Assembly: GCF_024298905.1 (NCBI RefSeq)
Contig: NZ_CP101154.1
Location: forward strand, 3,188,932-3,252,931
Source of the DNA: Natronomonas marina
GTDB taxonomy: Archaea > Halobacteriota > Halobacteria > Halobacteriales > Haloarculaceae
Direction of reading: 5' to 3'
Length of the DNA stretch: 64,000 nt
This document shows positions 3,109 to 64,000 of this stretch, one piece after another. Below the pieces are notes generated by a model that saw nothing but the letters and a program-made list of their open reading frames with translations, was not told the DNA's origin and made no database searches. A program made the translations under genes and the position numbers. Within the stretch, counting starts at the first letter, position 1, and every line of letters begins with the position of its first letter.

Positions 3109-3118
3109 GGCGGGCAGG

Positions 3119-3844: not shown

Positions 3845-3957
3845 GCCCGGATGCCCGAGGAACGGGAACGCCGGTTCCGTCCGTCAGTCCGAGTCGCCTG
3901 CATGGGCCTTCGTACTCCGCCGAACGAGTTGGTTAGTGACATCGTAACCGCGCTCCA

Positions 3958-5046
3958 TCACCCCACGTCGAGTTCGCCGAACCCTACCAGCCAGTTGTCG
4001 GGGTCGCGGACGTCGGCGCCGTCGAGCCGCCAGCCCCGCGGTTCGTCGCCGAACGGCCGGACGACGAACGGGCGCGTCCCGACGAGGCGCCCGACGAGCG
4101 GCGCGTCGCCGCCGAGAAAGCCGAAGGCCGCGAGCAGTTCCGGGTCGACGTCGTCCGCCACCGCCGACACCAGCGGCGCGTCGGCGTGGTCGGCCAGCGC
4201 CGCCCGCACGAGCGCCGCCGAGACGCCGTCCTCGCGGCCCGTTCGCGGCAGGAACTCCATGAACCGCGCGTCCGCCGGGCCGGACCCGACCACGGTCGCC
4301 CCGACCGGGCGACCGTCCCGCCGGGCGACGTAGGTGTCGTAGTCGCGGTCGGGACGGGCGTACCGCCACCCGTAGAACCGCTCGTCTCGCGGGACGTGAA
4401 ACGCGTCGGGCGGCCGACGTCGGGTCAGGTCGGCGAGCAACTCGACCGGAACCGTCGGGCGGCGCTCGACGGCGACGCCGGGGGCGGTCGGCGCCCGGAG
4501 CCGTTCGCCGAGCCGGTAGCATCCGGAGACGCCCGCGGCCAGCGGCCGACGAAGCGCCGACGGGAGCCGATCGACGAGCCGTGCGGGGTCCTGAAACCGG
4601 TGGTGGACCGGGAGGTGCTCGACGAGTTCCCAGCCGAGTTTCCGGTTGCCGGAGAGCGTCCGCTCGTTGGGGAAGTTGAACGACAGCGCCGGCCCGTCGG
4701 CGTAGCGGGTCAGCGCGTCCCGCGTCATCCGCGTGAACAGCCCCTGCCGTCTGTGGCCCGGATCGACCATCGTGTCGCAGGCCTGGAACGCCCCGACGCG
4801 GCCGGTCGGCGTCCGGAGTTCCAGCGCCAGGAAGGACCGCGCGCCGACCAGATTCCCTTCGTGGACCGCGACGACGATGGGGACGCCGTCGGCGTAGGGG
4901 TTCGAGGCGTACTTCCAGTCGAACCACGCGTCCGTCGGTCTGCTCCCGAACACCTCGCCGTAGAGGTCGAGATACGCCTCCCGGTCCGACGGCCGGAACG
5001 GTCGGACGTCGTAGGTCGCCCGGCCGGCGGCCGTCTGCTCGCTCAC
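3958..5046 (-). CDS. GNAT-family N-acetyltransferase
   Basis: 362 residues from a GTG at 5046. I chose this start because GTGA overlaps the stop of the upstream deacetylase gene by 4 bp, a sign of translational coupling; the open frame continues further 5' only as an antisense shadow. The motif TYDVRPFRPSDREAYLDLY opens a GNAT fold. CDTMVDPGHRRQGLFTRM (about residues 92-109) is the acetyl-CoA binding motif A (V-x-P-x-x-R-x-x-G). A second GNAT-like half follows (about 200-362), so it may be a tandem-GNAT protein. The acceptor substrate is not readable. It is co-transcribed with a polysaccharide deacetylase and a sulfatase-fold gene, so an amino sugar acceptor is plausible. Confidence 0.75.
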   Translation of the reverse strand: MSEQTAAGRATYDVRPFRPSDREAYLDLYGEVFGSRPTDAWFDWKYASNPYADGVPIVVAVHEGNLVGARSFLALELRTPTGRVGAFQACDTMVDPGHRRQGLFTRMTRDALTRYADGPALSFNFPNERTLSGNRKLGWELVEHLPVHHRFQDPARLVDRLPSALRRPLAAGVSGCYRLGERLRAPTAPGVAVERRPTVPVELLADLTRRRPPDAFHVPRDERFYGWRYARPDRDYDTYVARRDGRPVGATVVGSGPADARFMEFLPRTGREDGVSAALVRAALADHADAPLVSAVADDVDPELLAAFGFLGGDAPLVGRLVGTRPFVVRPFGDEPRGWRLDGADVRDPDNWLVGFGELDVG

Positions 5047-5996
5047 GGGACGGGCACCTCCCGGTCGGCCAGTGCCCGCCGGGCGAGTCCGTCCATCGTC
5101 TCGACGCGGAGGTCCGTCTCCTCGCGTCTGTCGGCGACGTGGGACACGACCGCCGCCACCCGGCGCGCGTAGGCGTCGTCGGTGAGGTCGTTGGGATGGA
5201 GCCACAGGTGGAAGACGCCGCCCTCGCGTCGGGCGCGCTCGACGCCGCGTTTCGCGAGGCCGACCGCCGGGTCGGTGCCGACGGACGCGACGGTCCGCCA
5301 GGGCCGGTCCCTGAAGCCGCCGAGGAACAGCGACGCCGGCAGTTCGACGAGACCGTACTCGTCGACGCGCGGCGAGACGACCGGCGGCGACCCGGTCCCG
5401 GTCAGGGTGCCGGCGAGCGTGGCCGCGCCCCGAACCCCCGGAACCGCCGGCAGGCGGTAGGGCCGCCGCCCGCGATAGCAGCGGTAGCCGTGTTCGGCGA
5501 GGACGTCCCTGTGTCCGATCCGGTTGCGCGGAAAGACGAACGAGGAGAACTCCAGGCCGAGCCGCCGGCCGTAGACCCGCGAGAGCCGACACTCGGCGTC
5601 GGCGACCGACCGGGACACGTCGGCGAAGACCGGGTGCGAGAAACTGTGGCTGGCGAGTTCGTGGTCGGCGTCGGCGTCGGCGACCGCCGCCACGAGGTCG
5701 CGGCCGAGCCACTCGTCGGGCCGCCGGGCGATTCCCCGCCGGGCGGTCTCGAACCACGCGTCCGACAGCGGGTGTTCGGGGGCGGCGTCGTCGGCGCTCT
5801 CGGCGAGCAGCGCCCCGACGACCGCCCAGGTCGCCGGCACCCCGTGCTCGTCGAACAGGTCGACGAGCCACGACCACGAGCGGCGGGCAGTCTCGATACG
5901 GCGCTCCTCGGCGGCCGACGGCTGGCGGTCGTGGACCCCCCAGGCCAGTTCCGCGTCCAGCGAGATGACGACGCTGCCGGGACCGCTACTCGTCAT
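5043..5996 (-). CDS. Polysaccharide deacetylase family protein
   Basis: 317 residues. The N-terminal VISLDAELAWGVHD has the metal/catalytic Asp of the NodB fold. GVPATWAVVGALL and ELASHSFSHPVFADVS supply the HSFSH motif (H-x3-H zinc ligands). FSSFVFPRNRIGHRDVLAEHGY matches the later conserved strand with its Pro-Arg, and FHLWLHPNDL the closing His motif. These are the elements of carbohydrate esterase family 4, which removes N- or O-acetyl groups from polysaccharide. There is no signal peptide, so it could act on cytoplasmic glycan intermediates. The start at 5996 overlaps the sulfatase-fold gene by 11 bp and the stop overlaps the GNAT start by 4 bp, so the three genes form one coupled unit. 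Confidence 0.85.
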   Translation of the reverse strand: MTSSGPGSVVISLDAELAWGVHDRQPSAAEERRIETARRSWSWLVDLFDEHGVPATWAVVGALLAESADDAAPEHPLSDAWFETARRGIARRPDEWLGRDLVAAVADADADHELASHSFSHPVFADVSRSVADAECRLSRVYGRRLGLEFSSFVFPRNRIGHRDVLAEHGYRCYRGRRPYRLPAVPGVRGAATLAGTLTGTGSPPVVSPRVDEYGLVELPASLFLGGFRDRPWRTVASVGTDPAVGLAKRGVERARREGGVFHLWLHPNDLTDDAYARRVAAVVSHVADRREETDLRVETMDGLARRALADREVPVP

Positions 5997-7371
5997 AGCC
6001 GAGCATCCGGAGCCGGGTCTTCACGCCGTCGTCGACCTCGACGGCCGACGGTTCGGCCTCGTTGCTCCGGGCGACCTCGAGGCGTTCGTCCAGTGCCGCC
6101 CGCAGGCGGCGGGCCGCGTCCGGCCGCGCGTCGAGGACGTCGGTCGTCTCCTCGGGGTCGGCCGCCCGGTCGTACAGCTCTTCGGTCCCGCTCCGGAGGT
6201 CGCGGATCAGCTTGTACCGCTCGGTGGCGACCATGGCGACGCCGGTGTCGCTGTCGTGGCCGCCGGCGAACACCGCCCGGCCGTCCGGCGGGTCGGCGAC
6301 GATGCCGGCCAGGGAGTCGCCGACGCAGACGGACGGGGTTTCCGCGCCGGCGAACTCCAGCAGCGTCGGCACGATGTCGGCGTTCGAGACAGGCGTCGAC
6401 ACCGCCCCGGCGTCGAAGCCGGGGCCGTTGACCACCAGCGGGACGTGAACGAGGTCGTCGTAGAGGACGCCGTCGGGGTGGAAGACGGCGTCGTGGTCGC
6501 CGAAGGCCTCGCCGTGGTCGGAGCCGAACACGACCAGCGACTCCGAGAGGTCCAGGCGGGCGTCCAGCCCGTCCAGCAGTTCCGCGAGCCGGCGATCGAA
6601 GTGCTCGACCTCGCCCTCGTAGAGCCGTTCGAGCCGGTCGAGGTCCGCGTCCGACGCGTCGGCGCGGCGCTCGTTGGCCCGGTGGAACAGCTTCACCGCG
6701 TGTCGCTTCCGCTCGTCTTCGCTCTCGGTCCCCTCCCGCGGGTAGTAGGGCGTGTGGACGTCCATGTAGTGGATCCACAGGAAGCGTGGGCCGGTGCTGT
6801 CCTCGAGGTACTCGAAGACGGCCTCGTTGACCTCTTCGGCGGGGACGTAGGGGTCGCCGCCGAGCTGGAGTCCGAGCTTCCGGCCGGCCGTCCCGTAGGC
6901 CGACCGGACGGCACGGGCGGCCCGTTTCGGGAGCAGTGACTCCTTCAGCACCGGCCAGTACTTCGACGAGAGGGTCGTCCGGTCGAGGTTCTCGCCGGTG
7001 TCGCGGCCCATGTAGTAGTCGAACCCCCTGTCGTAGCCGTAGGTGCTGCTGAGGTAGGGGTTCGTGTTGAAGCCGGCCGTCGCGTAGCCGGCCGCCGAGA
7101 GGCGTTCGGCGAGGTGGGGTCGTCCGGTGTCGAAGCCGCCGTCGATGGAGCCGAACATCCACGGGTAGGTCCCGCTGAAGATGGAGAGGAACGACCCCTT
7201 CGTGATGGTCGCGTTCGAGAAGGCGTTGGTGAAGAACGTCCCGCCGTCGGCCAGCGCCGACAGCCCGGCCAGCCCCGGCGCCGGGGCGTCGTCCGCTGCG
7301 ACGTAGTCGTACTGCAGCGAGTCGACCGTTATCAGGACGATGTCGCGGGTCGGTGTCCCGTCGTGGCTCAT
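5986..7371 (-). CDS. Sulfatase-fold (alkaline phosphatase superfamily) hydrolase or transferase
   Basis: 461 residues from ATG at 7371 (a GTG 9 nt earlier is also possible). Metal-site motifs are present: IVLITVDSLQYDYV (Asp17), FLWIHYMDVHTPYYP and FGSDHGEAFGDHDAVFHP (Asp-His pair). The C-terminus has the usual YKLIRDLRSGTEELYDRAADPEE strand of sulfatases. The segment aligned with the formylglycine motif (C/S-x-P-x-R) reads ATITKGSFLSIFSG. It has no Cys, Pro or Arg in place, so it is probably not a classic sulfatase; Thr55 or Thr57 could be the nucleophile, as in phosphoglycol/phosphoethanolamine transferases of the same fold. It is the first gene of the coupled unit with the deacetylase and GNAT, 62 bp below a GT4 gene. 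Confidence 0.8.
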   Translation of the reverse strand: MSHDGTPTRDIVLITVDSLQYDYVAADDAPAPGLAGLSALADGGTFFTNAFSNATITKGSFLSIFSGTYPWMFGSIDGGFDTGRPHLAERLSAAGYATAGFNTNPYLSSTYGYDRGFDYYMGRDTGENLDRTTLSSKYWPVLKESLLPKRAARAVRSAYGTAGRKLGLQLGGDPYVPAEEVNEAVFEYLEDSTGPRFLWIHYMDVHTPYYPREGTESEDERKRHAVKLFHRANERRADASDADLDRLERLYEGEVEHFDRRLAELLDGLDARLDLSESLVVFGSDHGEAFGDHDAVFHPDGVLYDDLVHVPLVVNGPGFDAGAVSTPVSNADIVPTLLEFAGAETPSVCVGDSLAGIVADPPDGRAVFAGGHDSDTGVAMVATERYKLIRDLRSGTEELYDRAADPEETTDVLDARPDAARRLRAALDERLEVARSNEAEPSAVEVDDGVKTRLRMLGYDE

Positions 7372-7433
7372 GGCCGTCACCAGCCGCGGCGCTCACAAGG
7401 TTATGGACCGAATATCGGCGGACGTGGCGGCGG

Positions 7434-8600
7434 TCACTCGCCGTCGAGGTCGGCCGCCAGCCCCGCGAGGAACGCCGAGAGCCGGTCGCCGACCGCCTCG
7501 GGGTCGTTCTCCCGGCGGGCGCGCCGTCGGCCGGCCTCGCCGAGTCGCCGGCGCTCGTCGGGGGTCGACAGCAGGCGGTCGAGGCGCGCCGCGAGTTCGC
7601 CGGGAGCGTCGGGGGCGACCAGGAATCCCGTCTCGCCGTCGGTTATCTGGTCGCGCATGCCGCAGGCGTCGCTGGCGACGACGGGGACGCCGGCCGTCTG
7701 GGCCTCCAGGACGACGTTCGGGTAGCCGTCGAGGTCGGAGACGTAGACGAAGACGTCCGCAAGCGCGTACAGGTCCGCCACCGAGTCGACGTGGCCGGGG
7801 GCGTGAACTCGTCGCCGGACGGCCGGGTCGTCGATGGCCGCTATCGCGTCCCGGAGGTCGGCGTGGTACTCGCCGCCGCCAGCGACGACGTAGGCGAGGT
7901 CGGGGTCGGCCGAGAGCAACGGCTCGACCGCCTCCAGCACCCGCTCGACGCCGGCCAGTTTCGCCCGGAACTTCAGGTTCGTCACCGTGAGCAGCACCCG
8001 CTCGGCGTCGATAGCGAGGGCGGCCCGCGCCGCGGCCGCCGACCCGCTCGTCGTGTCGGTCGTGACGGGGACGGGGACGACGCCGATCCGCTCGGGCGGA
8101 CAGCCGGTCCGCCGGGCGGCGACGCGGGCGAGGTCCGTCGAGACCGTCACGAAGCCGCTCGCTCGCTCGAAGACGACCCCGTTCAGCCCGTGGCTCAGGC
8201 GGTGTCGCAGGTACCGCGGGATATCCCGGTCGGCCCGGGCGGGAGCGAGCCGCTCCTCTTCGAGCTTCCGCCAGGGGTCGCCGACGAGGCGGGCCACAAC
8301 CGGCACGTCGTGGCGGTCGGCTACCAGGGCCGCCGGCGCGCCGAGCGTCTCGAAGCAGTCCAGCAGGAGGAGGTCCGGGTCGTGGCGGCCGAGGGCCCGC
8401 CGGGTGCGCCGGGCGGCCGACAGCGCCCTGGCGAGCGGGCCGGCGGAGTCGTCGAGTTCCAGCACCGACACGTCCAGGTCCGTGGCGGCCAGCGGGTCGA
8501 GCAGTTCCGCGGGCCGGTAGGACGTGACCGCCAGCACCGACACCGACGACGGCGGCCGGCTCTCCCGGCCCGCCAGCCGGGGTGACTCGCCGGCCGTCAT
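7434..8600 (-). CDS. Glycosyltransferase family 4 (GT-B)
   Basis: 388 residues from ATG at 8600, which shares ATGA with the stop of the upstream GT4 gene (8597). An N-terminal Rossmann half opens with SVSVLAVTSYRP. The C-terminal GT4 domain shows LLTVTNLKFRAKLAGVERVLEAV, YVVAGGGEYHADL and VFVYVSDLDGYPNVVLEAQTAGVPVVAS. The Glu pair (E-x7-E region) binds the nucleotide-sugar donor, here in a variant form (DGYPNVVLE). Length is normal for the family. It probably adds one sugar to a lipid-linked glycan on the cytoplasmic face. Donor and acceptor are not readable. It is co-transcribed with the upstream GT4 gene. Confidence 0.87.
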   Translation of the reverse strand: MTAGESPRLAGRESRPPSSVSVLAVTSYRPAELLDPLAATDLDVSVLELDDSAGPLARALSAARRTRRALGRHDPDLLLLDCFETLGAPAALVADRHDVPVVARLVGDPWRKLEEERLAPARADRDIPRYLRHRLSHGLNGVVFERASGFVTVSTDLARVAARRTGCPPERIGVVPVPVTTDTTSGSAAAARAALAIDAERVLLTVTNLKFRAKLAGVERVLEAVEPLLSADPDLAYVVAGGGEYHADLRDAIAAIDDPAVRRRVHAPGHVDSVADLYALADVFVYVSDLDGYPNVVLEAQTAGVPVVASDACGMRDQITDGETGFLVAPDAPGELAARLDRLLSTPDERRRLGEAGRRRARRENDPEAVGDRLSAFLAGLAADLDGE

Positions 8601-9772
8601 CGGAGCGCCTCCCGGTGAATCTCGCTGACGCGCCGGGCGTGGCCGCTCCACGTCCAGTCGTTGGCCTCCAGCCGTCGCCGGCCCGCGGCGCCCATCTTGC
8701 GCAGTCGGTCGGGGTCGGCCGACAGGTCGGCGAGCGCGTCGCCCAGCGCCGTCACGTCGCCCGGTTCGAGGAGGCGTCCGGCCTCGCTGTCGGCCACCTG
8801 CTCGGGGACGCCGCCGACGGCCGAGGCCAGCACTGCGGTCTCGCTCGCCATCGCCTCGTAGACGACCGTCGGCCGGCCCTCGGCGTGGCTCGGCAGCACC
8901 AGCAGGTCGGCCGCGGCGAACCACTCCCGGAGCCGTTCGGAGGGGAGACCGGCGTGGACCGTCGCGTCCTCCCGGTCGGCGACCGCCCGCCGCAGGTCGG
9001 TCTCCCGGTCGCCGCCGTGGCCGGCGAAGGCGAAGGTCACCCCGGGAAACGTCCGCGTCGAGAGCAGTTCCAGAAGTTCCGGGACGCCCTTCCGGTCGCT
9101 GAACTGGCCGACGAAGAGCACGAGCGTCTCCTCGGGGTCGAGACCGCGCTCGCTCCGGAGGCGTGCCCGCTCGCCGAGGGGGAACTTCCCGGGGTCGGCG
9201 CCGATGGGGACGGTCGCCACCTTCGAGGCGTCGACGAGCGACCGGGCCCGCTCGGCGAGGGCGTCGCTGACACAGAGGACGCCCTCGGCGGCCGCGAGCG
9301 TCTCCCGGACCCGGCCGGCGACGCCCGGCGGGAGGTCCTCGAACCCGTTGAGGAGCGCGCCGTGGGCGACGACGAACAGCGGGAGGTCGTGCTCGCGGGC
9401 GTACGGCAGCGTCCCGTAGCCGTCGGGGTAGATGTGACAGGCGTGGACGACGTCGGGCGGGTCGAAGGTCCGCTCGAGGTAGGGCGGCACCCGTTTAGCG
9501 TAGGAGTCGCCCGAGACCGCATAGAGGAGGCGCTTCGGCAGGAGGTACCAGAACCGGGGGTGGTGCACCGTGTAGCCGTCCCACCGCTCGGCCTCCGGCA
9601 GCGACGCGTACGCGGAGTAGGGGCCGACCGGCGGCGCGAACGGGCGCGGGGAGACGGCCGACAGGTCGACCCCCGTCTCCGAGAGCGCCCTGATGATGCG
9701 GTGGTTGAACAGCCCCTGGTAGGGGTTGATCGCGTCCGGGTGGTTGATCGCGCTGGCGATGAGCGAGTACAT
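8597..9772 (-). CDS. Glycosyltransferase family 4 (GT-B)
   Basis: 391 residues from the ATG at 9772, chosen because MYSLIASAINHPDAINPYQGLFNHRIIRAL is the usual GT4 opening strand and the 16 residues before it are Thr/Pro-rich and unlike the family. Domain features: HACHIYPDGYGTLPYAREHDLPLFVVAHG (acceptor half), LVLFVGQFSDRKGVPELLELL, and LLVLPSHAEGRPTVVYEAMASETAVLAS with the donor-binding Glu pair. The stop overlaps the next GT4 by 4 bp. It is one of three glycosyltransferases in this minus-strand block, consistent with assembly of a surface glycan or exopolysaccharide. Confidence 0.87.
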   Translation of the reverse strand: MYSLIASAINHPDAINPYQGLFNHRIIRALSETGVDLSAVSPRPFAPPVGPYSAYASLPEAERWDGYTVHHPRFWYLLPKRLLYAVSGDSYAKRVPPYLERTFDPPDVVHACHIYPDGYGTLPYAREHDLPLFVVAHGALLNGFEDLPPGVAGRVRETLAAAEGVLCVSDALAERARSLVDASKVATVPIGADPGKFPLGERARLRSERGLDPEETLVLFVGQFSDRKGVPELLELLSTRTFPGVTFAFAGHGGDRETDLRRAVADREDATVHAGLPSERLREWFAAADLLVLPSHAEGRPTVVYEAMASETAVLASAVGGVPEQVADSEAGRLLEPGDVTALGDALADLSADPDRLRKMGAAGRRRLEANDWTWSGHARRVSEIHREALR

Positions 9773-56189: not shown

Positions 56190-56780
56190 GTGTCGAATCC
56201 ATCCGCCCGTCTCCAACGGTTCCGTCCGTACTCGGTTCCTGTCTGTCTGTTCACCCTCGTGGCGGCCGCCGCACTGTTCGTCCCGCCGCTGATACTCGAT
56301 CTGTCGCCGAGAACGTACGCCATCACCGCGGCCGTGCTCGTGCTCGCGGTCACGTCGGCCTTCCCGTACGCCGTCGCCGTCGGGGTCGGGACACTCCCGC
56401 TGCTGTACGCGGGCGCCGGGAGCTACGCGTCCCCGCAAGCGACTCGGGGGGCGCCGTCGGCGTCGACGGCCCTCCGGCACGTCGGGGCCGGCGTCGCCTA
56501 CGTGCTGGCAGCGGCCGCCGTCGGTGCCATCGGCCTCGGTGCGGAGTTCGCGGCCCCGAGCGGGCAATCCGCTCTACCGGCCGCTCTGCGGCCGTCGTTC
56601 ATGATCGTCGGCAGCGGCGTCGTCGCCGCCGCGTTCGTCGGACTCCAGTTGTGGCGCTACGAGGGCCCGGTCGGACGTCTCGAAGCCCGGGCCGTCGCCG
56701 GGACGGTCGCGCTCGGACTCCTCCTGGTGCCGGCAGCACGGGTGGCGCTGTGGGTGTTCGGCGACGCCGGCCCGCTGTGA
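56190..56780 (+). CDS. Membrane protein, unknown function
   Basis: 196 residues from GTG at 56190. Five to six hydrophobic segments, starting with SVPVCLFTLVAAAALFVPPLIL and ending LGLLLVPAARVALWVFG. No motif recognised. It lies between the acyltransferase (65 bp) and the phosphopantothenate synthetase (59 bp), in the same direction, so it could be co-transcribed. Confidence 0.65.
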   Translation: MSNPSARLQRFRPYSVPVCLFTLVAAAALFVPPLILDLSPRTYAITAAVLVLAVTSAFPYAVAVGVGTLPLLYAGAGSYASPQATRGAPSASTALRHVGAGVAYVLAAAAVGAIGLGAEFAAPSGQSALPAALRPSFMIVGSGVVAAAFVGLQLWRYEGPVGRLEARAVAGTVALGLLLVPAARVALWVFGDAGPL

Positions 56781-56838
56781 GCGCCGCGGCCCTGCCGAGA
56801 ACGGGACGCTTTTCATCGCCCGTCGCCCACCGACCGGT

Positions 56839-57585
56839 ATGAGCGACGTCGACGTGCCGGAGTCGCACCCCCGCTACGAGTCGCTACTCCTGCGACACCG
56901 CATCGAGGAGGGCGTCGAGGCGGGCATCACCTCGAAACAGGGCCTCATCGCCCAGGGCCGCGGCGAGGCCTACGACTACCTGCTCGGCGAGCGGACGATT
57001 CCGAGCGCCGACGCCGCCGAGCGGGCCGCCGCCGCCCACCTCCTCCGTGCGGACCACCCGGTGCTGTCGGTCAACGGCAACGTGGCCGCGCTGGCGCCCG
57101 AGGAGACCGTCGAACTGGCCGCGGCCACCGGCGCGGCGCTGGAGGTCAACCTCTTCAACCGGACCGAGGCGCGGATGGAGCGCATCGCCGACCACCTCCG
57201 CGAGCACGGCGCCGAGGAGGTGCTGGGGCTGGCCGCCGACGGCCGCATCCCGGGGCTGGACCACGAGCGTGCGAAGGTCGACGCCGACGGCATCGGCAGC
57301 GCCGACGTGGTGCTCGTCCCGCTGGAGGACGGCGACCGTGCCGAGGCGCTGGCCGAGATGGACACGACCGAAATCGTAATCGACCTCAATCCGCTGAGCC
57401 GGTCGGCACGGACCGCGACGGTGCCCGTCGTGGACAACCTCATCCGCGCGCTGCCGAACATGACCGAGCACGCCCGCTCGCTGGCCGGCGCCGACGAGGC
57501 GGAACTGGACGCCGTCGTCGAGGCATTCGACCGCGAGGCGGCGCTCGAGGCGGCCGAGGCCGCGATTCGCTCGCCCGAGGAGTGA
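56839..57585 (+). CDS. 4-phosphopantoate--beta-alanine ligase (archaeal phosphopantothenate synthetase)
   Basis: 248 residues. The N-terminus HPRYESLLLRHRIEEGVEAGITSKQGLIAQGRGEAYDYLLGE is the diagnostic opening of the former DUF137 family. SVNGNVAALAPEETVELA, DVVLVPLEDGDRAEAL and IDLNPLSRSARTATVPVVDNLIRALPNM follow. It joins 4-phosphopantoate with beta-alanine using ATP; cytoplasmic. With pantoate kinase it replaces the bacterial PanC/CoaA route. Confidence 0.93.
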   Translation: MSDVDVPESHPRYESLLLRHRIEEGVEAGITSKQGLIAQGRGEAYDYLLGERTIPSADAAERAAAAHLLRADHPVLSVNGNVAALAPEETVELAAATGAALEVNLFNRTEARMERIADHLREHGAEEVLGLAADGRIPGLDHERAKVDADGIGSADVVLVPLEDGDRAEALAEMDTTEIVIDLNPLSRSARTATVPVVDNLIRALPNMTEHARSLAGADEAELDAVVEAFDREAALEAAEAAIRSPEE

Positions 57586-57681
57586 GCGTCGCCGGCGTGA
57601 GTACGGTGACGACCCGTTTTTGTCCAGCGTCTTGCGTCCGTCTGACGTAGTGTTTTATGTATAGGGACGGAACACGCCCGT

Positions 57682-58560
57682 ATGGCTAGCCTCACGGAGG
57701 TCTACGAGGGAGGCAACGGGGCCGGCCTCCGGCGGCTGTACGCCGGTGTCGCGCTGTTCGGGGTCGGCGCGGTCCTACTCGTTGCAGGTATCGTCACGGC
57801 GGCCACCGGCGTCGGGAGTCGGTTCGGCCTCGACGTGTTCGAGGCCCGCCGGGTCGCGGGCGTCCTCGGCGGGGTCGGGTTCCCGGCGGTACTTTTGGGG
57901 ACCATGACCGCGATTCCGCGCACCTCGCGGAAGATCCGCGTCGCCGCGTTCGTCGGCGGCGCCATCTGCGTCGTCGGCGTCGTCCTGTTCCACGGCGCCT
58001 ATCCGACCGACTGGGTCACCGGCTCCGGCAACAGTTCGATGACGCTCGTCGTCGCGTCGGTGTACTTCCTGGGGACGCTCGTCACGTCGTGGTGTCTGTT
58101 CGTCGCCGTCGCCAACTTCAAGGCGCGCAACGACCCCGGCGGCACCGTCAAACTCGAAATCACGAAGGAGGGCGAGACCCGCATTGTCGAGGTGTCCAAC
58201 GACGACCTCCGCGGACGGCTCGGCGGCATCGGCCTGCTCGGGGGAACGCCCGACGGCGACGTCGAGACGCAGACGAACCGCGGCGACTCCTCCCGCCGGT
58301 CGTCGGACCGCTCGCGGTCGGCGTCGACCCGTTCGCCCGATGCCTCGCCCGGCGTCACCGACGGCGGCGCAACGACCGACGACGCGGAGTTCCTCACCGA
58401 CGAACCCTCCCGGCCCCTCGGGGACACCTACTGCGGCAACTGCCAGCACTTCCAGTACGTCCGCACCGACGACGGCATGGCGCCGTACTGCGGCTACCAC
58501 GGCGAGTTGATGGACGACATGGACGCCTGCGAGGAGTGGACGCCGAACACGAACGCCTGA
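57682..58560 (+). CDS. Haloarchaeal membrane protein with C-terminal zinc-ribbon-like domain
   Basis: 292 residues. Four membrane helices (about 15-40, 55-75, 87-105, 118-145) precede a cytoplasmic part. SKY-like TVKLEITKEGETRIVEVSNDDLRGRLGG is a short ordered strand-helix; a Ser/Arg/Asp linker follows. The C-terminus YCGNCQHFQYVRTDDGMAPYCGYHGELMDDMDACEEW has Cys-x2-Cys and Cys/His pairs for a metal. This resembles the widespread uncharacterised DUF7139 type. Function unknown. Confidence 0.75.
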   Translation: MASLTEVYEGGNGAGLRRLYAGVALFGVGAVLLVAGIVTAATGVGSRFGLDVFEARRVAGVLGGVGFPAVLLGTMTAIPRTSRKIRVAAFVGGAICVVGVVLFHGAYPTDWVTGSGNSSMTLVVASVYFLGTLVTSWCLFVAVANFKARNDPGGTVKLEITKEGETRIVEVSNDDLRGRLGGIGLLGGTPDGDVETQTNRGDSSRRSSDRSRSASTRSPDASPGVTDGGATTDDAEFLTDEPSRPLGDTYCGNCQHFQYVRTDDGMAPYCGYHGELMDDMDACEEWTPNTNA

Positions 58561-58651
58561 CGACGACACTCGAACGCCCGAACCGAGGGCGCCGACACCG
58601 CTTTCGACTCTTCCGCCCCGTTGAAACCCTCACAGCGGTACAAGGCGGAAG

Positions 58652-60092
58652 CCCACGGCTTTAGCCGTGGGAGGAAGCCGACACAATTGACACAGAGAAG
58701 CCGTGGTACAGCAGCCTGACATCCGAGTAATTTAAATTTCCGGATGTCTAACAACTAACTAGTGGTGGACGCGAACAGAACGCTCATCCTCCCGCTTGAA
58801 ACACCGACGAGCGATGAGCACGAACGCTTCCACCGAACCGTCGAGAAATACCAGCACTGCCGCAAGCGAGCCCGCGAGTACTGCTGGCAGAATCCCAAGC
58901 AACCTGACGACATCGTAACCTCGAAAAGCGAGGTCGAAGACGCTCTGTACCACGACCTCCGCGAAGAAACCGACGAGCTCCATGCAAATCTCGTACAGAA
59001 AGCCATCAAAGATGTAACCAACGCGATGAGCGCAGCGAAGAAAGCATGGAAGCGTGATGAGCGCATCAGCAAACCAACGTGGGATACCAGCGAGGCATGG
59101 GTGATGACCTACGATACCCGAGCTGGTACGTTCTCCAAGCACAACGCGAGGTTTGCAACCGCGGAAGCAACCGTCGAGCTTGCGTATCAAACACCGTCAC
59201 ATCTCGACGGGACGCTGTACGACAAGTACGTCCTCTCCACGAAGTGGGAGCTAACGACGAGCAAACTTGCCTATCGGGACGGGCAGTACTGGCTCCATCT
59301 CGGCGTTAAACGAGCGCTTTCCGACCAGCACTGGACAGCACGAGTCAACAGAGAGGTTTCGAACGCGCCCAATGAGGATACGAGTCGTGTCCTCGGCGTG
59401 GACCTTAATGTCAAAGGCTGGACGGCTGTAACGAGTGCTGGCGGCTTCCACGGCAACGCTGACTACCTCAACCACCGACGCGATCAGTACGAAGCACTGC
59501 GTGGCGAGCTACAGCAAACGGGAACGCGGAGCGCGTATCTTCGGTTCCACGAGCGAGCTGGTACTGAGTCAGCGTGGTTTGACGAGTACGCCCACCTCGT
59601 CTCGAATGCTATCATAGAAGACGCACTGGACACTCGTTCGACGCATATCGCCTTCGAGAAACTGAAAGGGATTCGCAAGCGGATGAGCAACCTGCCGAAG
59701 TACCAGCAGTGGCTGTTCGGGCGTGTGCAGGAGTACACGGAGTACAAAGCGACTGAACACGGGATTAGCGTTGTGTACGTGAACCCGAAGAATACGAGCA
59801 AGGGGTGTAGTCATACCGAGTGTCGAACGGTGAGCGATTCGAATCGGGGTGAAAAGCAGTTCGAGTGCGTTGGGTGTGGTCGGTCGTGGAACGCTGATTA
59901 TAACGCGGCGCGGAACATCGGGCTACGGCATATTTTCGATTCGTTGCTCCCAGCGAGCCAAACGTGTTCGTCTGGGAAGACCACTTGTCAACTGGCCTTT
60001 ATTTCAGGGGTCCTCTCCGTTACAGAGCGTGACGTAAGTCACGTTTCCAAGGAGTGGATGTCCACTGACAAGCCCACCGCTTTAGCGGTGGG
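58652..60092 (+). mobile_element. IS200/IS605-group solitary tnpB element
   Basis: The tnpB gene is bounded by two hairpins: cccacggc-ttta-gccgtggg at 58652-58671 and cccaccgc-ttta-gcggtggg at 60073-60092. They share loop and flanks (aagcccac...gtggg), and differ by a compensating base pair, as expected for conserved ends or an omega-RNA 3' stem. No tnpA lies in the window, so it is an IS1341-like, non-autonomous element. Exact ends and target motif cannot be set from one copy. The DNA is visibly less GC-rich than the host. Confidence 0.75.
58718..58748 (+). promoter_or_regulatory. tnpB promoter with inverted repeat around the TATA box
   Basis: gacatccg (58718-58725) and cggatgtc (58741-58748) are perfect inverted 8-bp arms around a 15-nt AT-rich spacer containing atttaaat, a strong archaeal TATA box. 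The GTG start lies 13 nt after the right arm, consistent with a leaderless transcript. Confidence 0.55.
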
Positions 60093-60099
60093 TAGCTGA
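58762..60099 (+). CDS. tnpB: TnpB RNA-guided nuclease
   Basis: 445 residues from GTG at 58762. It has an N-terminal helical REC-like part (about 1-130) and a split RuvC nuclease: GVDLNVKGWTAV (Asp214), IAFEKLKGI (Glu299) and NADYNAARNIG (Asp379). The triad is intact. The zinc ribbon SKGCSHTECRTV ... FECVGCGRSW lies between the last two. TnpB proteins are programmed by a transposon-end RNA (omega-RNA) to cut DNA. The last codons run through the right-end hairpin (60073-60092), so coding and RNA functions overlap, as known for this family. Confidence 0.92.
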   Translation: MVDANRTLILPLETPTSDEHERFHRTVEKYQHCRKRAREYCWQNPKQPDDIVTSKSEVEDALYHDLREETDELHANLVQKAIKDVTNAMSAAKKAWKRDERISKPTWDTSEAWVMTYDTRAGTFSKHNARFATAEATVELAYQTPSHLDGTLYDKYVLSTKWELTTSKLAYRDGQYWLHLGVKRALSDQHWTARVNREVSNAPNEDTSRVLGVDLNVKGWTAVTSAGGFHGNADYLNHRRDQYEALRGELQQTGTRSAYLRFHERAGTESAWFDEYAHLVSNAIIEDALDTRSTHIAFEKLKGIRKRMSNLPKYQQWLFGRVQEYTEYKATEHGISVVYVNPKNTSKGCSHTECRTVSDSNRGEKQFECVGCGRSWNADYNAARNIGLRHIFDSLLPASQTCSSGKTTCQLAFISGVLSVTERDVSHVSKEWMSTDKPTALAVGS

Positions 60100-60118
60100 C
60101 CAACTGATAGGAACGGCG

Positions 60119-60146
60119 TGCTGAATATAGAGGGTGGATGCAGCAG
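60119..60146 (+). repeat. Palindromic intergenic element A (half)
   Basis: tgctgaatatagagggtgga followed by tgcagcag is the right arm of the element family seen complete in 61838-61931. Only this arm is present, 20 bp after the tnpB stop. The nearest minus-strand gene stop (60209) lies 63 bp downstream. Confidence 0.65.
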
Positions 60147-60208
60147 TTGGCCGCAGTCTATTTCGCCTCGCTAGTAGCAAAACAGGCGTTGGACGAATGT
60201 GCGCAGAT

Positions 60209-60397
60209 TTATTCGGTACTTGCCCCGAGCTGGTATAGCAACAGGCCGCTAGCTAAGAGAAGCCCCCCAAACGTCCATTCAAATGCACTACCCGGAAGCG
60301 ATTGTGAGTAGCCTAATACTGGGTTAGTGAGGATTATTACACCGGCTACCAGAACAAATAGAGATGCGGAATATTCCGCGGCCTTTTGATAATCCAT
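60209..60397 (-). CDS. Small membrane protein, unknown function
   Basis: 62 residues with two helices (YSASLFVLVAGVIILTNPVLGY and WTFGGLLLASGLLLYQLGA). A TATA-like ctaatatttt box lies about 25-30 nt upstream of the ATG on the minus strand, giving a leaderless layout. It is the only gene between elements A and B. No family recognised. Confidence 0.6.
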   Translation of the reverse strand: MDYQKAAEYSASLFVLVAGVIILTNPVLGYSQSLPGSAFEWTFGGLLLASGLLLYQLGASTE

Positions 60398-60484
60398 CCC
60401 AACAAGATCGTCATATCCGATTTGACTAATATTTTGATGTACTGTCTTGACCGGTCGCCTCTGATCGAATTAGAAAATGACCCT

Positions 60485-60579
60485 ATGCGAGATACGCGCT
60501 CTGTATTCAGCAGGGCCCGTGATACTTACTCAGAGTCTGTCAGATCCCGATTGCTGAATATAGAGGCTGAGTTCAGCAG
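60485..60579 (+). repeat. Palindromic intergenic element B
   Basis: Arms cgcgctctgtattcagca and tgctgaatatagaggctga (the latter reading inverted) surround a core shared with element E. 60495-60566 is identical to 62418-62489 (72 bp, no mismatch). The following about 60 bp resemble the DNA after element D (ctgttcattccaac ... gtgaatcagctgtgag). Confidence 0.75.
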
Positions 60580-60647
60580 ACGGGCTCTGTTCATTCCAAC
60601 CACTCTGCGGTGAATCAGCTGTGAGAACGCGCTTGCGAATGTATCGG

Positions 60648-61187
60648 CTATGCTCCGCTACGACTGTGCTCGTAGACGTAGCTGAAAACGAGGCTGAGTG
60701 GGACGGCTATCCAGATCGTCCACACGACCACTACCAAGATGGTAAGGGGGTACAGCTCAAAGAACGCTCCGAGGAACTCGGTGAGCGAGGTCGGCGGGTC
60801 AACTCCCCCGTATGGGTTCAAAAACTGGTAGCCGTACACCGGAGCCAGTAGCAACCACACGGCAGTTCCGGCAAGGTAGTTTCCGGCGACCGTGACCAAC
60901 GCTGCGACGGCACTGTAGTATGGGACACTCGCCGGCAGGGAGCGCCATGTGAGCGCCCCGACCACGAATCCCGTGGCGATGTACACCGGGGTCGCAGACA
61001 GAATCACCCCTGCGGAACCCACCGTACCCGAAACCAGCGTACTCACCGGAGCAAACACGATTCCACCGGCGAGGACACCGGCGGCCATACTGTAGCCGGC
61101 CCCGACGTCCTGTCGGTCCCCGAGCGGCAACCGTGTCGGTCCGTATCGACCGTACAGCCGCACCACTCGGTCCAGCCTGGCTACCAT
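60648..61187 (-). CDS. Multi-pass membrane protein, unknown function
   Basis: 179 residues from ATG at 61187 (the open frame continues 30 codons upstream into basic, unlike sequence). Four helices: SMAAGVLAGGIVFAPVSTLVSG, VILSATPVYIATGFVVGAL, AVAALVTVAGNYLAGTAVWLLL and YPLTILVVVVWTIWIAVPLSLVF. No motif recognised. It is the only gene between elements B and C; the stop lies 69 bp above the end of B. Confidence 0.65.
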   Translation of the reverse strand: MVARLDRVVRLYGRYGPTRLPLGDRQDVGAGYSMAAGVLAGGIVFAPVSTLVSGTVGSAGVILSATPVYIATGFVVGALTWRSLPASVPYYSAVAALVTVAGNYLAGTAVWLLLAPVYGYQFLNPYGGVDPPTSLTEFLGAFFELYPLTILVVVVWTIWIAVPLSLVFSYVYEHSRSGA

Positions 61188-61403
61188 GACGCTCTGCACT
61201 CGTAATTTGTACTTGAAAAACTTTTCTCCGCCGGCTGGACTGCATCTCGCTGTCCATCTCCCGATCTGGGGCAGCATAGGCTACAGGATAGACCAGATAC
61301 ACAGGTAGAACAGTCCACTCACTGAATAATCGAATACAATCCAATCGATATATTTCTAGTCTACATCGACCGATCCGATCTTCTCCGGTGTCCGCTCTCT
61401 TGG

Positions 61404-61495
61404 CATGCCACATTCGCGCCCTCTATGCAGCAGACCTCTGCAACCCTATTCACCTGATGGCAGAAACAGCCTGACCGATAAAGAGCATATACGGC
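61404..61495 (+). repeat. Palindromic intergenic element C (diverged)
   Basis: attcgcgccctctatgcagca starts the copy. The core cctattcacctgatggcagaaac aligns with element D and the right arm (gataaagagcatata) is degenerate. It stands between the 60648-61187 gene and the plus-strand gene at 61611. The rest of the 61188-61610 gap holds the promoter of that gene and no other feature. Confidence 0.6.
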
Positions 61496-61610
61496 ACTGG
61501 TAGGGACGGTTGATGTTATCCATTGTCTCAGTCACTTGTACCCATTGTGCGTTTGCAGGTAGCAGAAATTCGGTTGCTGAATTTATTATCGGGCCCCGCT
61601 AGTGGAGAGT

Positions 61611-61802
61611 ATGGTCCTCCAGACAGAGAGTGGGAACAGGACACAGCAGGCAGGCGTCGTCGCTGGCAGTGCTGCAGTTATGTTCGCTGCTGCAGCAACG
61701 ACCGATGGACTGTTTTCAGGTGTGATGTTCGGTGCAGCGGTTGTGACGATTCTCTCCGCACTTGCGCTCTATGCGGCCGCCTACCGGGAGAAAGAGAACT
61801 GA
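61611..61802 (+). CDS. Small membrane protein, unknown function
   Basis: 63 residues from the ATG at 61611 (an in-frame GTG at 61602 is possible). A TATA-like tttattat (61582-61589) lies about 25 nt upstream, so a leaderless mRNA is likely. Two helices (GVVAGSAAVMFAAAATTDGLF, MFGAAVVTILSALALYAAAY). It is the only gene between elements C and D, and is on the plus strand unlike the others. Confidence 0.6.
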   Translation: MVLQTESGNRTQQAGVVAGSAAVMFAAAATTDGLFSGVMFGAAVVTILSALALYAAAYREKEN

Positions 61803-61837
61803 TCACGAATTCTCCGATGTGACCGTACTCATCTCAT

Positions 61838-61931
61838 GCTGCATTCGCGCCCTCTATTCAGAAGGCCGCTGCAGACCTACTCAGCTGCTGTCAGAAACGG
61901 TCTGGCCGATATAGAGCGTGGATGCAGCAGA
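61838..61931 (+). repeat. Palindromic intergenic element D (complete)
   Basis: The left arm tgctgcattcgcgccctcta (61838-61857) and right arm tagagcgtggatgcagca (61913-61930) are imperfect inverted repeats of about 25 bp. The core contains ctactcagctgctgtcagaa. This is the most complete copy. The minus-strand gene stop at 62004 lies 73 bp further, and the interval resembles that after element B. Confidence 0.75.
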
Positions 61932-62003
61932 TTGCCCCTGTTCGTTTCAACGTGCCTGCGATGAATCAGCCGTGAGGACGAGTCTGCAGATGTATTGAAT
62001 TAG

Positions 62004-62240
62004 CTATTTTTGAGTTTCATCTGCAGTCGACGACTCTGCGGAGTTTTCAACTGTCTTTTGAGAGCTTTCAATTATTGGGAAGTAATCGAAGCCGAGGTAC
62101 AGAAGGGCACCCAGTACTATCAGGCGTAAGAGACCTCCGTTACCGGATGGGTGGAGAATGAAACCGGTGAGCGCGATGGCTGCGACAAGGATAGCTGTAC
62201 ACCGGCGAACCGTTTGCCGGAGGAGAGCAGGGTTATCCAT
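62004..62240 (-). CDS. Small membrane protein, unknown function
   Basis: 78 residues with two helices (TAILVAAIALTGFILHPSG and GLLRLIVLGALLYLGFDYF) and an acidic tail (ENSAESSTADETQ). The Arg-rich N-terminus suggests a cytoplasmic start. A TATA-like gtttagac lies about 15-20 nt upstream of the ATG on the minus strand. It is the only gene between elements D and E. Confidence 0.6.
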   Translation of the reverse strand: MDNPALLRQTVRRCTAILVAAIALTGFILHPSGNGGLLRLIVLGALLYLGFDYFPIIESSQKTVENSAESSTADETQK

Positions 62241-62408
62241 ACGGTAGAGCGTCTAAACGGATGGCTGTAAAAACCTATCGTTGCAGAGGCTGTACTTCAA
62301 GAACGGCAGGTCCAGACCGCCACTGCTGTATTCATCCTCTACAAATACCGATAGCTATAACCCCCTGTACTGGCCGATTCACTTCTTTGCTTCTCTCGCC
62401 AAGAACAA

Positions 62409-62500
62409 TGCTGCATTCGCGCTCTGTATTCAGCAGGGCCCGTGATACTTACTCAGAGTCTGTCAGATCCCGATTGCTGAATATAGAGGGTATACTCAGA
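62409..62500 (+). repeat. Palindromic intergenic element E
   Basis: The left arm tgctgcattcgcgctctgta begins at 62409; 62418-62489 matches element B exactly. The right arm (tatagagggtatactcag) is partly degenerate. A further partial left arm, tgctgtattcatcctctac, lies at 62324-62342. Both sit in the 352-bp gap (62241-62592) before the histidine kinase. Confidence 0.75.
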
Positions 62501-62592
62501 GTCGGTTCGGGGCAACCGGTCTGGATACGTTGCTCGACTCACGGGCCGATACTTCAATAACACTCACAGCAGTATGCCCACATGACTGACTG

Positions 62593-64000
62593 ATGGTTGG
62601 ACAGTGGACTCTCTTTTTTATCCCGCTCTTTGGGGGTGCAGGGATTCTGTTCGGTCTGGCTGTCCTTGCGTTCAATAACCGTGACACACGCGGCGCGACG
62701 CCGCTGGGAGGATACCTCGTCACGACGGGCCTGTACAACGTTTTCTACGCGCTGCAACTGTGGGACACGACGCCCGGAGGAAGCCTCTTGTGGGCGCAAT
62801 TGCAGCTGCCAATGTGGAGTTCGGCTGCCGTTTTTGGACTCCTCTTCGCGATCGAGTACACGAACCGAGAAACATGGCTCAGTCCCGCCCGCGTTGCCGC
62901 GCTCTTCATGCCCCCTGCCATAGCGACCGTTCTCTTTGTGCTGCAGCCGGAGCTGTTCTTTGCGAACGTACGGATGCGTGAGGAGCTCTCACTGGTGATT
63001 ATGGCCGCCGACAAACGGACCGGCTGGTGGCTCATTCTCGCATACGGATACGGGGTCGTACTACTCGGAACGGCACTCATCAGTCTTCGATTCCTCCGCT
63101 CGATTCGCGTCGGGCAGTTTCGCGGCCAAGCACTGTTACTCGTCGTCGGCTACACGGCCACCATCGGAAGCAACGCCCTCCAGAACAGTTTCGGGTTTCA
63201 GGTGTCATTCGCGTCGCTCGGCTTCGCCGTGACCGGAATCATCGTTTACGTCGCGGTGTTCAGGTTCGGACTGTTCACCTCAGTGCCCGTCGCCAGACGG
63301 ACCATCCTGGAAACCATGGCAGATGGGTTTCTCGTGGTCGATCAGGAGGGCCAGATCATCGACGCAAACCAGCAGGCCCGGGAGATATTCGGCGGTGAAC
63401 CAGTTATCGATAAGCCAGTCGAGGCGGTCTATCCAGCGTACGAAGGTGAGATTCGAGGTCAACAAAACGGCCACGCAAGGCGCGAATACCAGCGCCACAT
63501 TGGCGACCGGGACAGAGTCTTCGACGTCCAGATCTCTCCAGTGGCTGGCATTGGAGGCGGGGTCGATGCGCACGTCGTCCGTTTCAGCGACATCACCGAG
63601 CGCAAAGAGCGTGAGCGGGAACTGGAAGCGACGAAGCGCGATCTCGAACGGTCGAACGAGAAACTCGACCGGTTTGCCAGTATGGTGAGCCACGATCTGC
63701 GGAACCCACTGACCGTGATCAAGGGTCGGGCGGAACTCCTTCGAGGACAGGCCCCTGCGGACGACGTCGAGCCCATCGAGAAGAGCGCCGAACGGATGGA
63801 GACGATGATCGAGGACCTGCTGACGCTGTCACGAGCGGGCGAAAGCGTCGCGGAGGCCGAACCCGTTTTGCTGGCGGGGGTCGTCGAAGACAGCTGGGCG
63901 GCCGTCAGTAGTGACGACGTCGAACTCGACGTCGATGTTCCGGATGACGTGGAAGTTGAGGCCGACGTTGACCGTCTTCGACACGTTTTCGAGAACCTCT
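62593..64000 (+). CDS. Membrane sensor histidine kinase with 7TM and PAS domains, 3' end missing
   Basis: 469 residues visible from ATG at 62593; the window ends inside the ATPase domain. The first about 225 residues hold seven hydrophobic segments (LFFIPLFGGAGILFGLAVLAF, GYLVTTGLYNVFYAL, SSAAVFGLLFAIEYTNRE, ...), the 7TM sensor region of this class. A PAS domain follows (about 237-345, LETMADGFLVVDQEGQIIDANQQAREIFGG). HisKA is RFASMVSHDLRNPLTVIKGRAELL, with phosphoacceptor His367. The start of the N box (VDRLRHVFENL) is visible. It was not obvious as a complete frame because it has no stop in the window. Confidence 0.88.
   Translation, partial: MVGQWTLFFIPLFGGAGILFGLAVLAFNNRDTRGATPLGGYLVTTGLYNVFYALQLWDTTPGGSLLWAQLQLPMWSSAAVFGLLFAIEYTNRETWLSPARVAALFMPPAIATVLFVLQPELFFANVRMREELSLVIMAADKRTGWWLILAYGYGVVLLGTALISLRFLRSIRVGQFRGQALLLVVGYTATIGSNALQNSFGFQVSFASLGFAVTGIIVYVAVFRFGLFTSVPVARRTILETMADGFLVVDQEGQIIDANQQAREIFGGEPVIDKPVEAVYPAYEGEIRGQQNGHARREYQRHIGDRDRVFDVQISPVAGIGGGVDAHVVRFSDITERKERERELEATKRDLERSNEKLDRFASMVSHDLRNPLTVIKGRAELLRGQAPADDVEPIEKSAERMETMIEDLLTLSRAGESVAEAEPVLLAGVVEDSWAAVSSDDVELDVDVPDDVEVEADVDRLRHVFENL

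What the first reader, a model, noticed from the sequence alone, without database searches (positions are those of the whole stretch)
60119..62592. Cassette-like array: five related palindromic elements alternating with single small genes
Elements A (60119), B (60485), C (61404), D (61838) and E (62409) share arms (tgctgcattcgcgccctcta / tatagagggtggatgcagca) and, in B to E, a core (ctgtcaga). Exactly one gene lies between each pair: four small membrane proteins. The minus-strand genes end 63, 69 and 73 bp after elements A, B and D, and the spacer after B resembles that after D. This is the layout of gene cassettes with a recombination or processing site at the gene's 3' side, as in integrons, though the arms are not attC-like and no tyrosine integrase is seen in the window. 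Alternatives are a MITE-like element inserting at gene ends, or an RNA structure used as a terminator.
Basis: partly seen in the sequence, partly recalled or inferred. Interest (0 to 1): 0.8.

Follow-up and report, generated by a model that had tools for sequence, protein, structure and literature searches.

The report
Swappable gene cassettes in salt-loving archaea
Salt-loving archaea carry rows of single-gene cassettes separated by a fixed 93-letter DNA joint, apparently swapped in and out by their own cutting-and-joining enzyme inside a jumping element, which looks like an archaeal counterpart of the bacterial integron built from different parts.

Summary
Elements B-E are each exactly 93 bp: a 27-bp arm, a 39-bp core and a 27-bp arm. 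A is a right half, and a left half F lies 340 bp past the window end. The same element occurs across Halobacteriales (120 of 146 relatives), often in long arrays with every copy in one orientation (115 of 120 neighbouring pairs). Related modules switch identity inside the 5-bp spacers of the arms, which look like tyrosine-recombinase core sites. A distinctive short tyrosine recombinase sits between two arms in place of the core: arms lie next to 32 of 40 clade members and 0 of 9 sister enzymes. Whole arrays end in inverted repeats (GGCTCTGTTGAAATCC) with 8-bp target duplications. Two plasmids share one insertion and a 91-94% identical backbone but carry entirely different cassettes, and identity resumes at the predicted spacer on the right. 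I conclude this is a transposon-borne, dif-module-like or integron-like cassette system of haloarchaea with its own recombinase. The architecture and breakpoints are shown. The enzyme's activity is inferred. I found no description of it in the open-access literature searched.

The parts
58614..58633 (+). left outer inverted end (TIR) of the array-carrying transposon, CGCCCCGTTGAAACCCTCAC
   Evidence: matches GGCTCTGTTGAAATCCTCA found at array ends elsewhere, 4 mismatches; flank GACTCTTC matches right flank GATTCATC at 6 of 8 bases
58634..60100 (+). IS1341-type TnpB element inserted in the left end (TnpB gene 58762-60099); secondary insertion, approximate ends
   Evidence: ORF and Pfam Cas12f1-like_TNB; it splits CCTCA from AACTGATAGG, contiguous in other left ends
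60101..60145 (+). element A: right half only; right arm 60119-60145
   Evidence: model positions 50-93; right halves start arrays in other genomes
60209..60397 (-). cassette 1 gene, 62-aa membrane protein
   Evidence: ORF, predicted TM segment
60486..60578 (+). element B; left arm 60486-60512, core 60513-60551, right arm 60552-60578
60648..61277 (-). cassette 2 gene, 209-aa membrane protein (start codon uncertain)
   Evidence: ORF, 4 predicted TM segments
61406..61498 (+). element C; left arm 61406-61432, core 61433-61471, right arm 61472-61498 (outer half degenerate)
61602..61802 (+). cassette 3 gene, 66-aa membrane protein
   Evidence: ORF; present with C and most of D in a second copy at C1:648913-649477, 99.5% identical
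61837..61929 (+). element D; left arm 61837-61863, core 61864-61902, right arm 61903-61929
   Evidence: the second copy loses identity inside the right-arm spacer
62004..62240 (-). cassette 4 gene, 78-aa membrane protein
   Evidence: ORF, 2 predicted TM segments
62409..62501 (+). element E; left arm 62409-62435, core 62436-62474, right arm 62475-62501
   Evidence: core identical to B; identity runs from left-arm spacer to right-arm spacer
62593..64000 (+). cassette 5 gene, 7TM-PAS sensor histidine kinase, runs to about 64290 outside the window
   Evidence: Pfam HisKA_7TM, PAS, HisKA; 565 aa in L018; closing left arm about 64341-64367 and TIR about 64392-64410

Best explanation
The window holds one array of a haloarchaeal gene-cassette system. 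Each 27-bp arm is a tyrosine-recombinase core site: two 11-bp inverted half-sites around a 5-bp spacer, CGCCC-type in the left arm and GAGGG-type in the right arm. Recombination left-with-left or right-with-right, at the spacers, excises, inserts or swaps the DNA between arms. Two kinds of module alternate: gene cassettes (right arm to next left arm) and spacer modules (left arm to right arm), the latter a 39-bp core or the gene of a dedicated short tyrosine recombinase. Because the two spacer types do not match, all copies keep one orientation. The whole array sits in a transposon-shaped unit with 20-bp inverted ends and 8-bp target duplications, probably moved by an IS5-family transposase in trans. 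Shown: architecture, orientation rule, breakpoints, integrase linkage, target duplications, and cassette replacement in a shared insertion. Inferred: that the linked recombinase is the enzyme, left/right site specificity, a circular intermediate, and which transposase moves the unit.
For: (1) Fixed 27-39-27 architecture in 109 ungapped copies. (2) Neighbouring copies within 4 kb: 115 same orientation, 5 opposite; 48 of 48 when both are full. (3) Arrays start with right-half and end with left-half elements. (4) Pairs with near-identical cores have random flanks; excess identity is 0.80 at positions 71-75, 0.38 at 76-80 and 0.06 at 81-85; pairs sharing the left flank fall from 0.84 at 6-10 to 0.04 at 11-15. 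In the window, B and E are identical exactly from spacer to spacer. (5) A tyrosine recombinase with invariant catalytic residues is flanked by arms in 32 of 40 clade loci and 0 of 9 sister loci, Fisher p = 1e-5, and is commoner in element-rich genomes, 12 of 33 versus 5 of 113. (6) Perfect 8-bp target duplications at four arrays, a fifth by eye, and an empty site. (7) G105:C5 and G033:C2 share one insertion, 91-94% identical around it, but 4.2 kb versus 14.9 kb of unrelated cassettes; identity stops in the first right arm and resumes at GCGC in the last left-arm spacer.
Against: No recombination has been seen in a cell. About two thirds of element-rich genomes lack the linked integrase (21 of 33), so those arrays are orphaned or use another enzyme such as the host XerA. 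The integrase is below the XerA and IntI family cut-offs and its sites are unproven. The left boundary of the shared-insertion comparison is blurred by a 140-bp MITE in G105. The left end of the window's second copy (L004) stops 45 bp outside an arm, next to an IS. Arms are conserved anyway, so breakpoints inside them are resolved only to about 5 bp.
Confidence: 0.82

Rival explanations
1. MITE-like or small mobile repeat: 93-bp elements with terminal inverted repeats insert next to genes by a transposase acting in trans, and arrays are chance clusters.
For: Size, inverted arms and dispersed diverged copies; Haloquadratum SMR-A repeats are about 110 bp with inverted ends, no target duplication and unknown mobilisation (PMC3119063).
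Against: 115 of 120 neighbouring copies share orientation. Identity between sister copies ends inside the arms, not at element ends. Half elements and outer TIRs with target duplications enclose whole arrays. Gene content changes inside one insertion.
Confidence: 0.06
2. Homologous recombination or gene conversion between conserved repeats shuffles the genes; no dedicated site-specific enzyme is involved.
For: Repeats are similar enough to pair; one duplicated block (565 bp) has a boundary outside an arm.
Against: Switch points cluster at both spacers rather than across the 93 bp. Arms are only 27 bp and diverged. A recombinase gene lies between arms in 32 of 40 cases.
Confidence: 0.07
3. The host chromosome-dimer recombinase (XerA) drives the exchange, as XerCD does for Acinetobacter dif modules; the linked integrase is a passenger.
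For: The arms have dif-like design, and many element-rich genomes lack the linked integrase.
Against: The integrase is repeatedly placed between arms, and the family is enriched in element-rich genomes.
Confidence: 0.15
4. RNA structure: the palindrome is a terminator or processing element at gene ends.
For: Each element can fold on its own (z -2 to -3 for B and D), and minus-strand genes end near elements.
Against: No covariation support in the alignment; no Rfam match; genes lie in both orientations.
Confidence: 0.04

Closest known systems
Acinetobacter dif (pdif) modules moved by XerCD (PMC13141974, PMC6449649)
   Same: Modules lie between 27-28 bp recombinase sites in alternating orientation. 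Two module types must alternate. Spacer identity governs which sites react. Module content of related replicons differs at the sites.
   Different: A dedicated short tyrosine recombinase is encoded inside the system. One of the two module types is a constant 39-bp core or the recombinase gene. Left and right sites have different spacers, so arrays keep one orientation. Arrays are chromosomal or plasmid-borne in a TIR/8-bp-TSD unit. Host is an archaeon.
Integrons and attC cassette arrays, including archaeal integrons (PMC9668308)
   Same: Tandem arrays of mostly single-gene cassettes separated by a repeat made of two simple sites, all in one orientation. Tyrosine recombinase. Orphan arrays without integrase. 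Carried by transposons.
   Different: No GTTRRRY/RYYYAAC core sites, no IntI-family integrase, and exchange at both arms. No support for a folded single-strand site. Gene orientation is random. Not reported from Halobacteria in that paper.
Small mobile repeats (SMR-A) and deletion-coupled insertions of Haloquadratum walsbyi (PMC3119063)
   Same: About 110-bp elements with inverted arms and no target duplication; unrelated sequences at identical positions in two strains; mobilisation unexplained.
   Different: They are reported to insert into IS605/PATE palindromes, which is not what these elements do. Relation untested.
IS5-family haloarchaeal insertion sequences
   Same: Similar GGCTCTGTTGAAATCC inverted ends on IS copies with IS5_2 transposase fragments.
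   Different: The array units carry no transposase of their own in the cases read, e.g. L212.

Membership tests
Integron / attC cassette array | IntI-family integrase | tested here: not met
   NCBIfam integron integrase 21-26 bits against cut-off 265
Integron / attC cassette array | attC site with R' GTTRRRY and R'' RYYYAAC | tested here: not met
   consensus of 92 aligned element copies lacks both motifs
Integron / attC cassette array | folded single-strand site as substrate | tested here: inconclusive
   no covariation support for a fold; activity not testable here
Integron / attC cassette array | cassette genes mostly in one orientation relative to the site | tested here: not met
   32 same, 35 opposite
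Integron / attC cassette array | tandem array of small cassettes with same-orientation sites | tested here: met
   115 of 120 pairs
dif modules (XerCD) | 27-28 bp sites of two inverted 11-bp half-sites and a short spacer, alternating in orientation | tested here: met
   site composition and arrangement
dif modules (XerCD) | exchange breakpoints in the spacer | tested here: met
dif modules (XerCD) | dependence on host Xer recombinases | not testable with these tools
   the linked enzyme is not XerA by NCBIfam (47.6-56.4 bits against 220); host XerA not assayed
Tyrosine recombinase superfamily (PF00589) | family profile and catalytic R, H-x-x-R, H/W, Y residues | tested here: met
   PF00589 at 51-61 bits, cut-off 27; invariant R57, H173, R176, W199, Y208
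MITE | whole element inserts with target duplication and free orientation | tested here: not met
   fixed orientation; identity limits inside the element
DDE transposon (whole array) | terminal inverted repeats and fixed-length target duplication | tested here: met
   8-bp duplications and one empty site
DDE transposon (whole array) | own transposase gene | tested here: not met
   none in L212 ORFs 1996-9641 nor in the window array
Haloquadratum SMR-A | sequence identity to HqIRS42, HqIRS43 or HqIRS55 | not tested
   sequences are only in supplementary tables that could not be read

The most novel reading that the evidence does not exclude
A third lineage of gene-cassette capture systems, besides integrons and dif modules: a haloarchaeal platform in which one dedicated, catalytic-domain-only tyrosine recombinase acts on paired left and right sites with incompatible spacers, so that gene cassettes and a constant spacer or integrase module alternate in orientation-locked arrays, and whole arrays travel as transposons across genera.
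Probability: 0.65. Interest if true: 0.92.

Novelty: new variant of a known kind. Interest (0 to 1): 0.86.

Why it matters
Haloarchaea exchange genes freely and show unexplained local replacement of small genes between close strains, for example the 'deletion-coupled insertions' of Haloquadratum. A self-encoded cassette system present in most of the relatives searched would give a concrete, testable route for that traffic, would be a second integron-like system in Archaea built from different parts, and could provide a recombinase with short paired sites that works at high salt.

Tried and rejected
RNA element: no Rfam match and no covariation. attL/attR/attB reading with the 39-bp core as crossover and the outer GGCTCTG palindrome as attB (formed): replaced when outer ends proved to be TIRs with 8-bp duplications and breakpoints fell in the arms. 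Second short-integrase family near elements (L144, L149, L150): one relative (L151) has no elements nearby; not pursued. HK and window-DNA searches for a syntenic empty site in relatives gave no allelic locus. Viral contigs: only one 48%-identical sister enzyme, without arms. Defence function: PADLOC hits were mostly one TnpB read as Cas12; cargo is mixed. Papers: searches for integron-like arrays or intergenic repeats in haloarchaea found none; the library is open-access only.

Full report
OBSERVATION. The repeats are real. B, C, D and E are each exactly 93 bp, a 27-bp arm, a 39-bp core and a 27-bp arm. The arm patterns have no match in 100 shuffles of the window. One ORF lies in each interval, with 62, 209, 66 and 78 aa, all with predicted membrane segments and without Pfam match. 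A is only the right half of an element. Beyond the window end the array goes on: a histidine kinase (62593-64290), then a left-half element F and an inverted outer end at about 64341-64410. The outer end on the other side is at 58614; an IS1341-type TnpB element has been inserted just inside it, which is why A looks isolated.

DISTRIBUTION. A sequence-only model built from ten copies finds 37 hits in the window's genome and hits in 120 of 146 relatives. In a sample of 197 genomes of the phylum all 22 positive genomes belong to the same order. Several genomes carry long arrays, for example G027, G033, G085, G128 and a 45-kb array in G142. Neighbouring copies within 4 kb have the same orientation in 115 cases and opposite in 5; when both are full, 48 to 0. 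The median interval is about 1 kb. Genes lie equally often in either direction (32 and 35). Cargo is mixed: small membrane proteins, lipoproteins, short-chain dehydrogenases, transporters, sensor kinases, hydrolases.

SITE ANATOMY. Both arms have the form 11-bp half-site, 5-bp spacer, inverted 11-bp half-site: left TGCAAGATACG-CGCCC-TGTATTCAGCA, right TGACCGATACA-GAGGG-TGTATTCAGCA. This is the design of a tyrosine-recombinase core site. The two arms face each other in inverted orientation and have different spacers. RNA covariation is absent and Rfam finds nothing.

BREAKPOINTS. Among 109 distinct full elements, pairs with near-identical cores have unrelated flanks (about 25% identity), and pairs sharing one flank have different cores. 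Excess identity over background falls from 0.80 (positions 71-75) to 0.38 (76-80) to 0.06 (81-85) on the right, and for pairs sharing the left flank from 0.84 (6-10) to 0.04 (11-15) on the left. These are the two spacers. In the window, B and E are identical from the left-arm spacer to the right-arm spacer and differ in both outer halves. The second copy of C-gene-D elsewhere in the genome (99.5% over 565 bp) loses identity inside the right-arm spacer of D (GAGC|G against GAGC|C); its other boundary lies 45 bp outside C next to an IS and is unexplained.

ENZYME. Comparing array loci revealed a recurring short tyrosine recombinase. It carries PF00589 with invariant R57, H173, R176, W199 and Y208. 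It lies far below the NCBIfam cut-offs for archaeal XerA and integron integrase, and only four PDB chains, all Xer proteins, match weakly. Its gene sits between a left and a right arm, in the place of the 39-bp core. Arms are found within 250 bp of 32 of 40 members of the clade and of 0 of 9 members of the sister group (Fisher p = 1.2e-5). Named hosts include Natronorubrum, Halorussus, Halorubrum, Halorientalis, Halogranum, Halobellus, Natrinema, Halonotius and a Haloquadratum MAG. The window's genome has two copies (2435526-2436203 and 2437699-2438343) next to elements. The clade is enriched in element-rich genomes (12 of 33 against 5 of 113, p = 8e-6), but 21 of 33 element-rich genomes lack it.

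TRANSPOSON SHELL. Arrays begin with a right-half element and end with a left-half element. Outside them lie inverted ends GGCTCTGTTGAAATCCTCA; the reversed motif gave no match. Four arrays have perfect 8-bp target duplications (L083, L084, L145, L212), none of 30 mispaired controls reaches even 6 of 8, and L114 and L152 have none; a fifth, L095, was read by eye. The window array has GACTCTTC and GATTCATC, 6 of 8 (chance 0.004). L212 of Natronorubrum halalkaliphilum is a 7.6-kb unit with the integrase module inside and no transposase. Similar ends occur on IS5-family elements in L092, so an IS5-type transposase in trans is my inference.

NATURAL EXPERIMENT. Plasmid-like contigs G105:C5 and G033:C2 share a backbone at 91-94% identity around the same array insertion with the same duplication ACCGACGT and the same outer ends. 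G033 has 4.2 kb of cassettes there, G105 has 14.9 kb, with no cassette in common. On the right, identity resumes at GCGC in the left-arm spacer of the last half element (ATACGTAT|GCGCTGTG against CCCGACTC|GCGCTGTG). On the left it ends within the first right arm, where G105 also has a 140-bp MITE that blurs the exact point. A further array in G105 is absent from G033, whose empty site TACCAGAA appears duplicated (TACCATAA / TACCAGAA) in G105.

MECHANISM AND LIMITS. The best reading is a two-site module system: left arms recombine with left arms and right with right, at the spacers, so gene cassettes and spacer/integrase modules are swapped while orientation is kept. Shown here: anatomy, orientation rule, breakpoints, linkage of the enzyme, duplications, replacement of content. 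Inferred: activity of the enzyme, spacer-type specificity, circles, and the transposase. It works like dif modules (PMC13141974) and integrons (PMC9668308) but fails defining tests of integrons (IntI, attC motifs, gene orientation), and its linked enzyme is not XerA by profile. No description was found in the open-access library; subscription papers were not searchable, so novelty is stated with that reservation. I file it as a new variant of a known kind rather than categorically new because cassette arrays shuffled by tyrosine recombinases are already known.

Noticed in passing
window 58634-60100: IS1341-type TnpB element inserted inside the left end of the array, splitting the outer inverted end from element A.
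   Followed up: partly
window 60579-60644 and 61930-61995; also L028, L017, L009: A conserved stretch of roughly 60 bp follows the right arm in several cassettes of two genera (about 70% between B and D; the others seen by eye). It lies beyond the 3' end of minus-strand genes and could be a shared terminator or regulatory tail.
   Followed up: no
L009 6914-7478 (G000:C1:648913-649477): Second copy of C-gene-D (565 bp, 99.5%) beside an IS1182/IS5-like transposase gene, with 79 bp of the segment after B nearby in inverted orientation.
   Followed up: partly
L100-L102 (G142:C23:29306-75113): A 45-kb stretch with about 20 same-orientation elements and integrase modules, the longest array read.
   Followed up: partly
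G105:C5, rc position 21505 (L176): A roughly 140-bp MITE with ends AGCCTTGTTTAGACGC sits in a right arm with a 9-bp duplication CAGAGGGTG; the arm may be a target.
   Followed up: no
G105:C5 array at rc 56440-62594 (L240, L176): An array whose two outer half elements are both of the right type, facing each other, unlike the usual right-half/left-half pair.
   Followed up: no
L144, L149, L150: A second short integrase family (206 aa) lies about 80-100 bp from elements in three places; one relative (L151) has none nearby.
   Followed up: partly
PMC3119063: Haloquadratum SMR-A repeats and 'deletion-coupled insertions' at identical positions are described as unexplained; they might be traces of this system. 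Haloquadratum MAG loci L226 and L228 carry the linked integrase with arms.
   Followed up: partly
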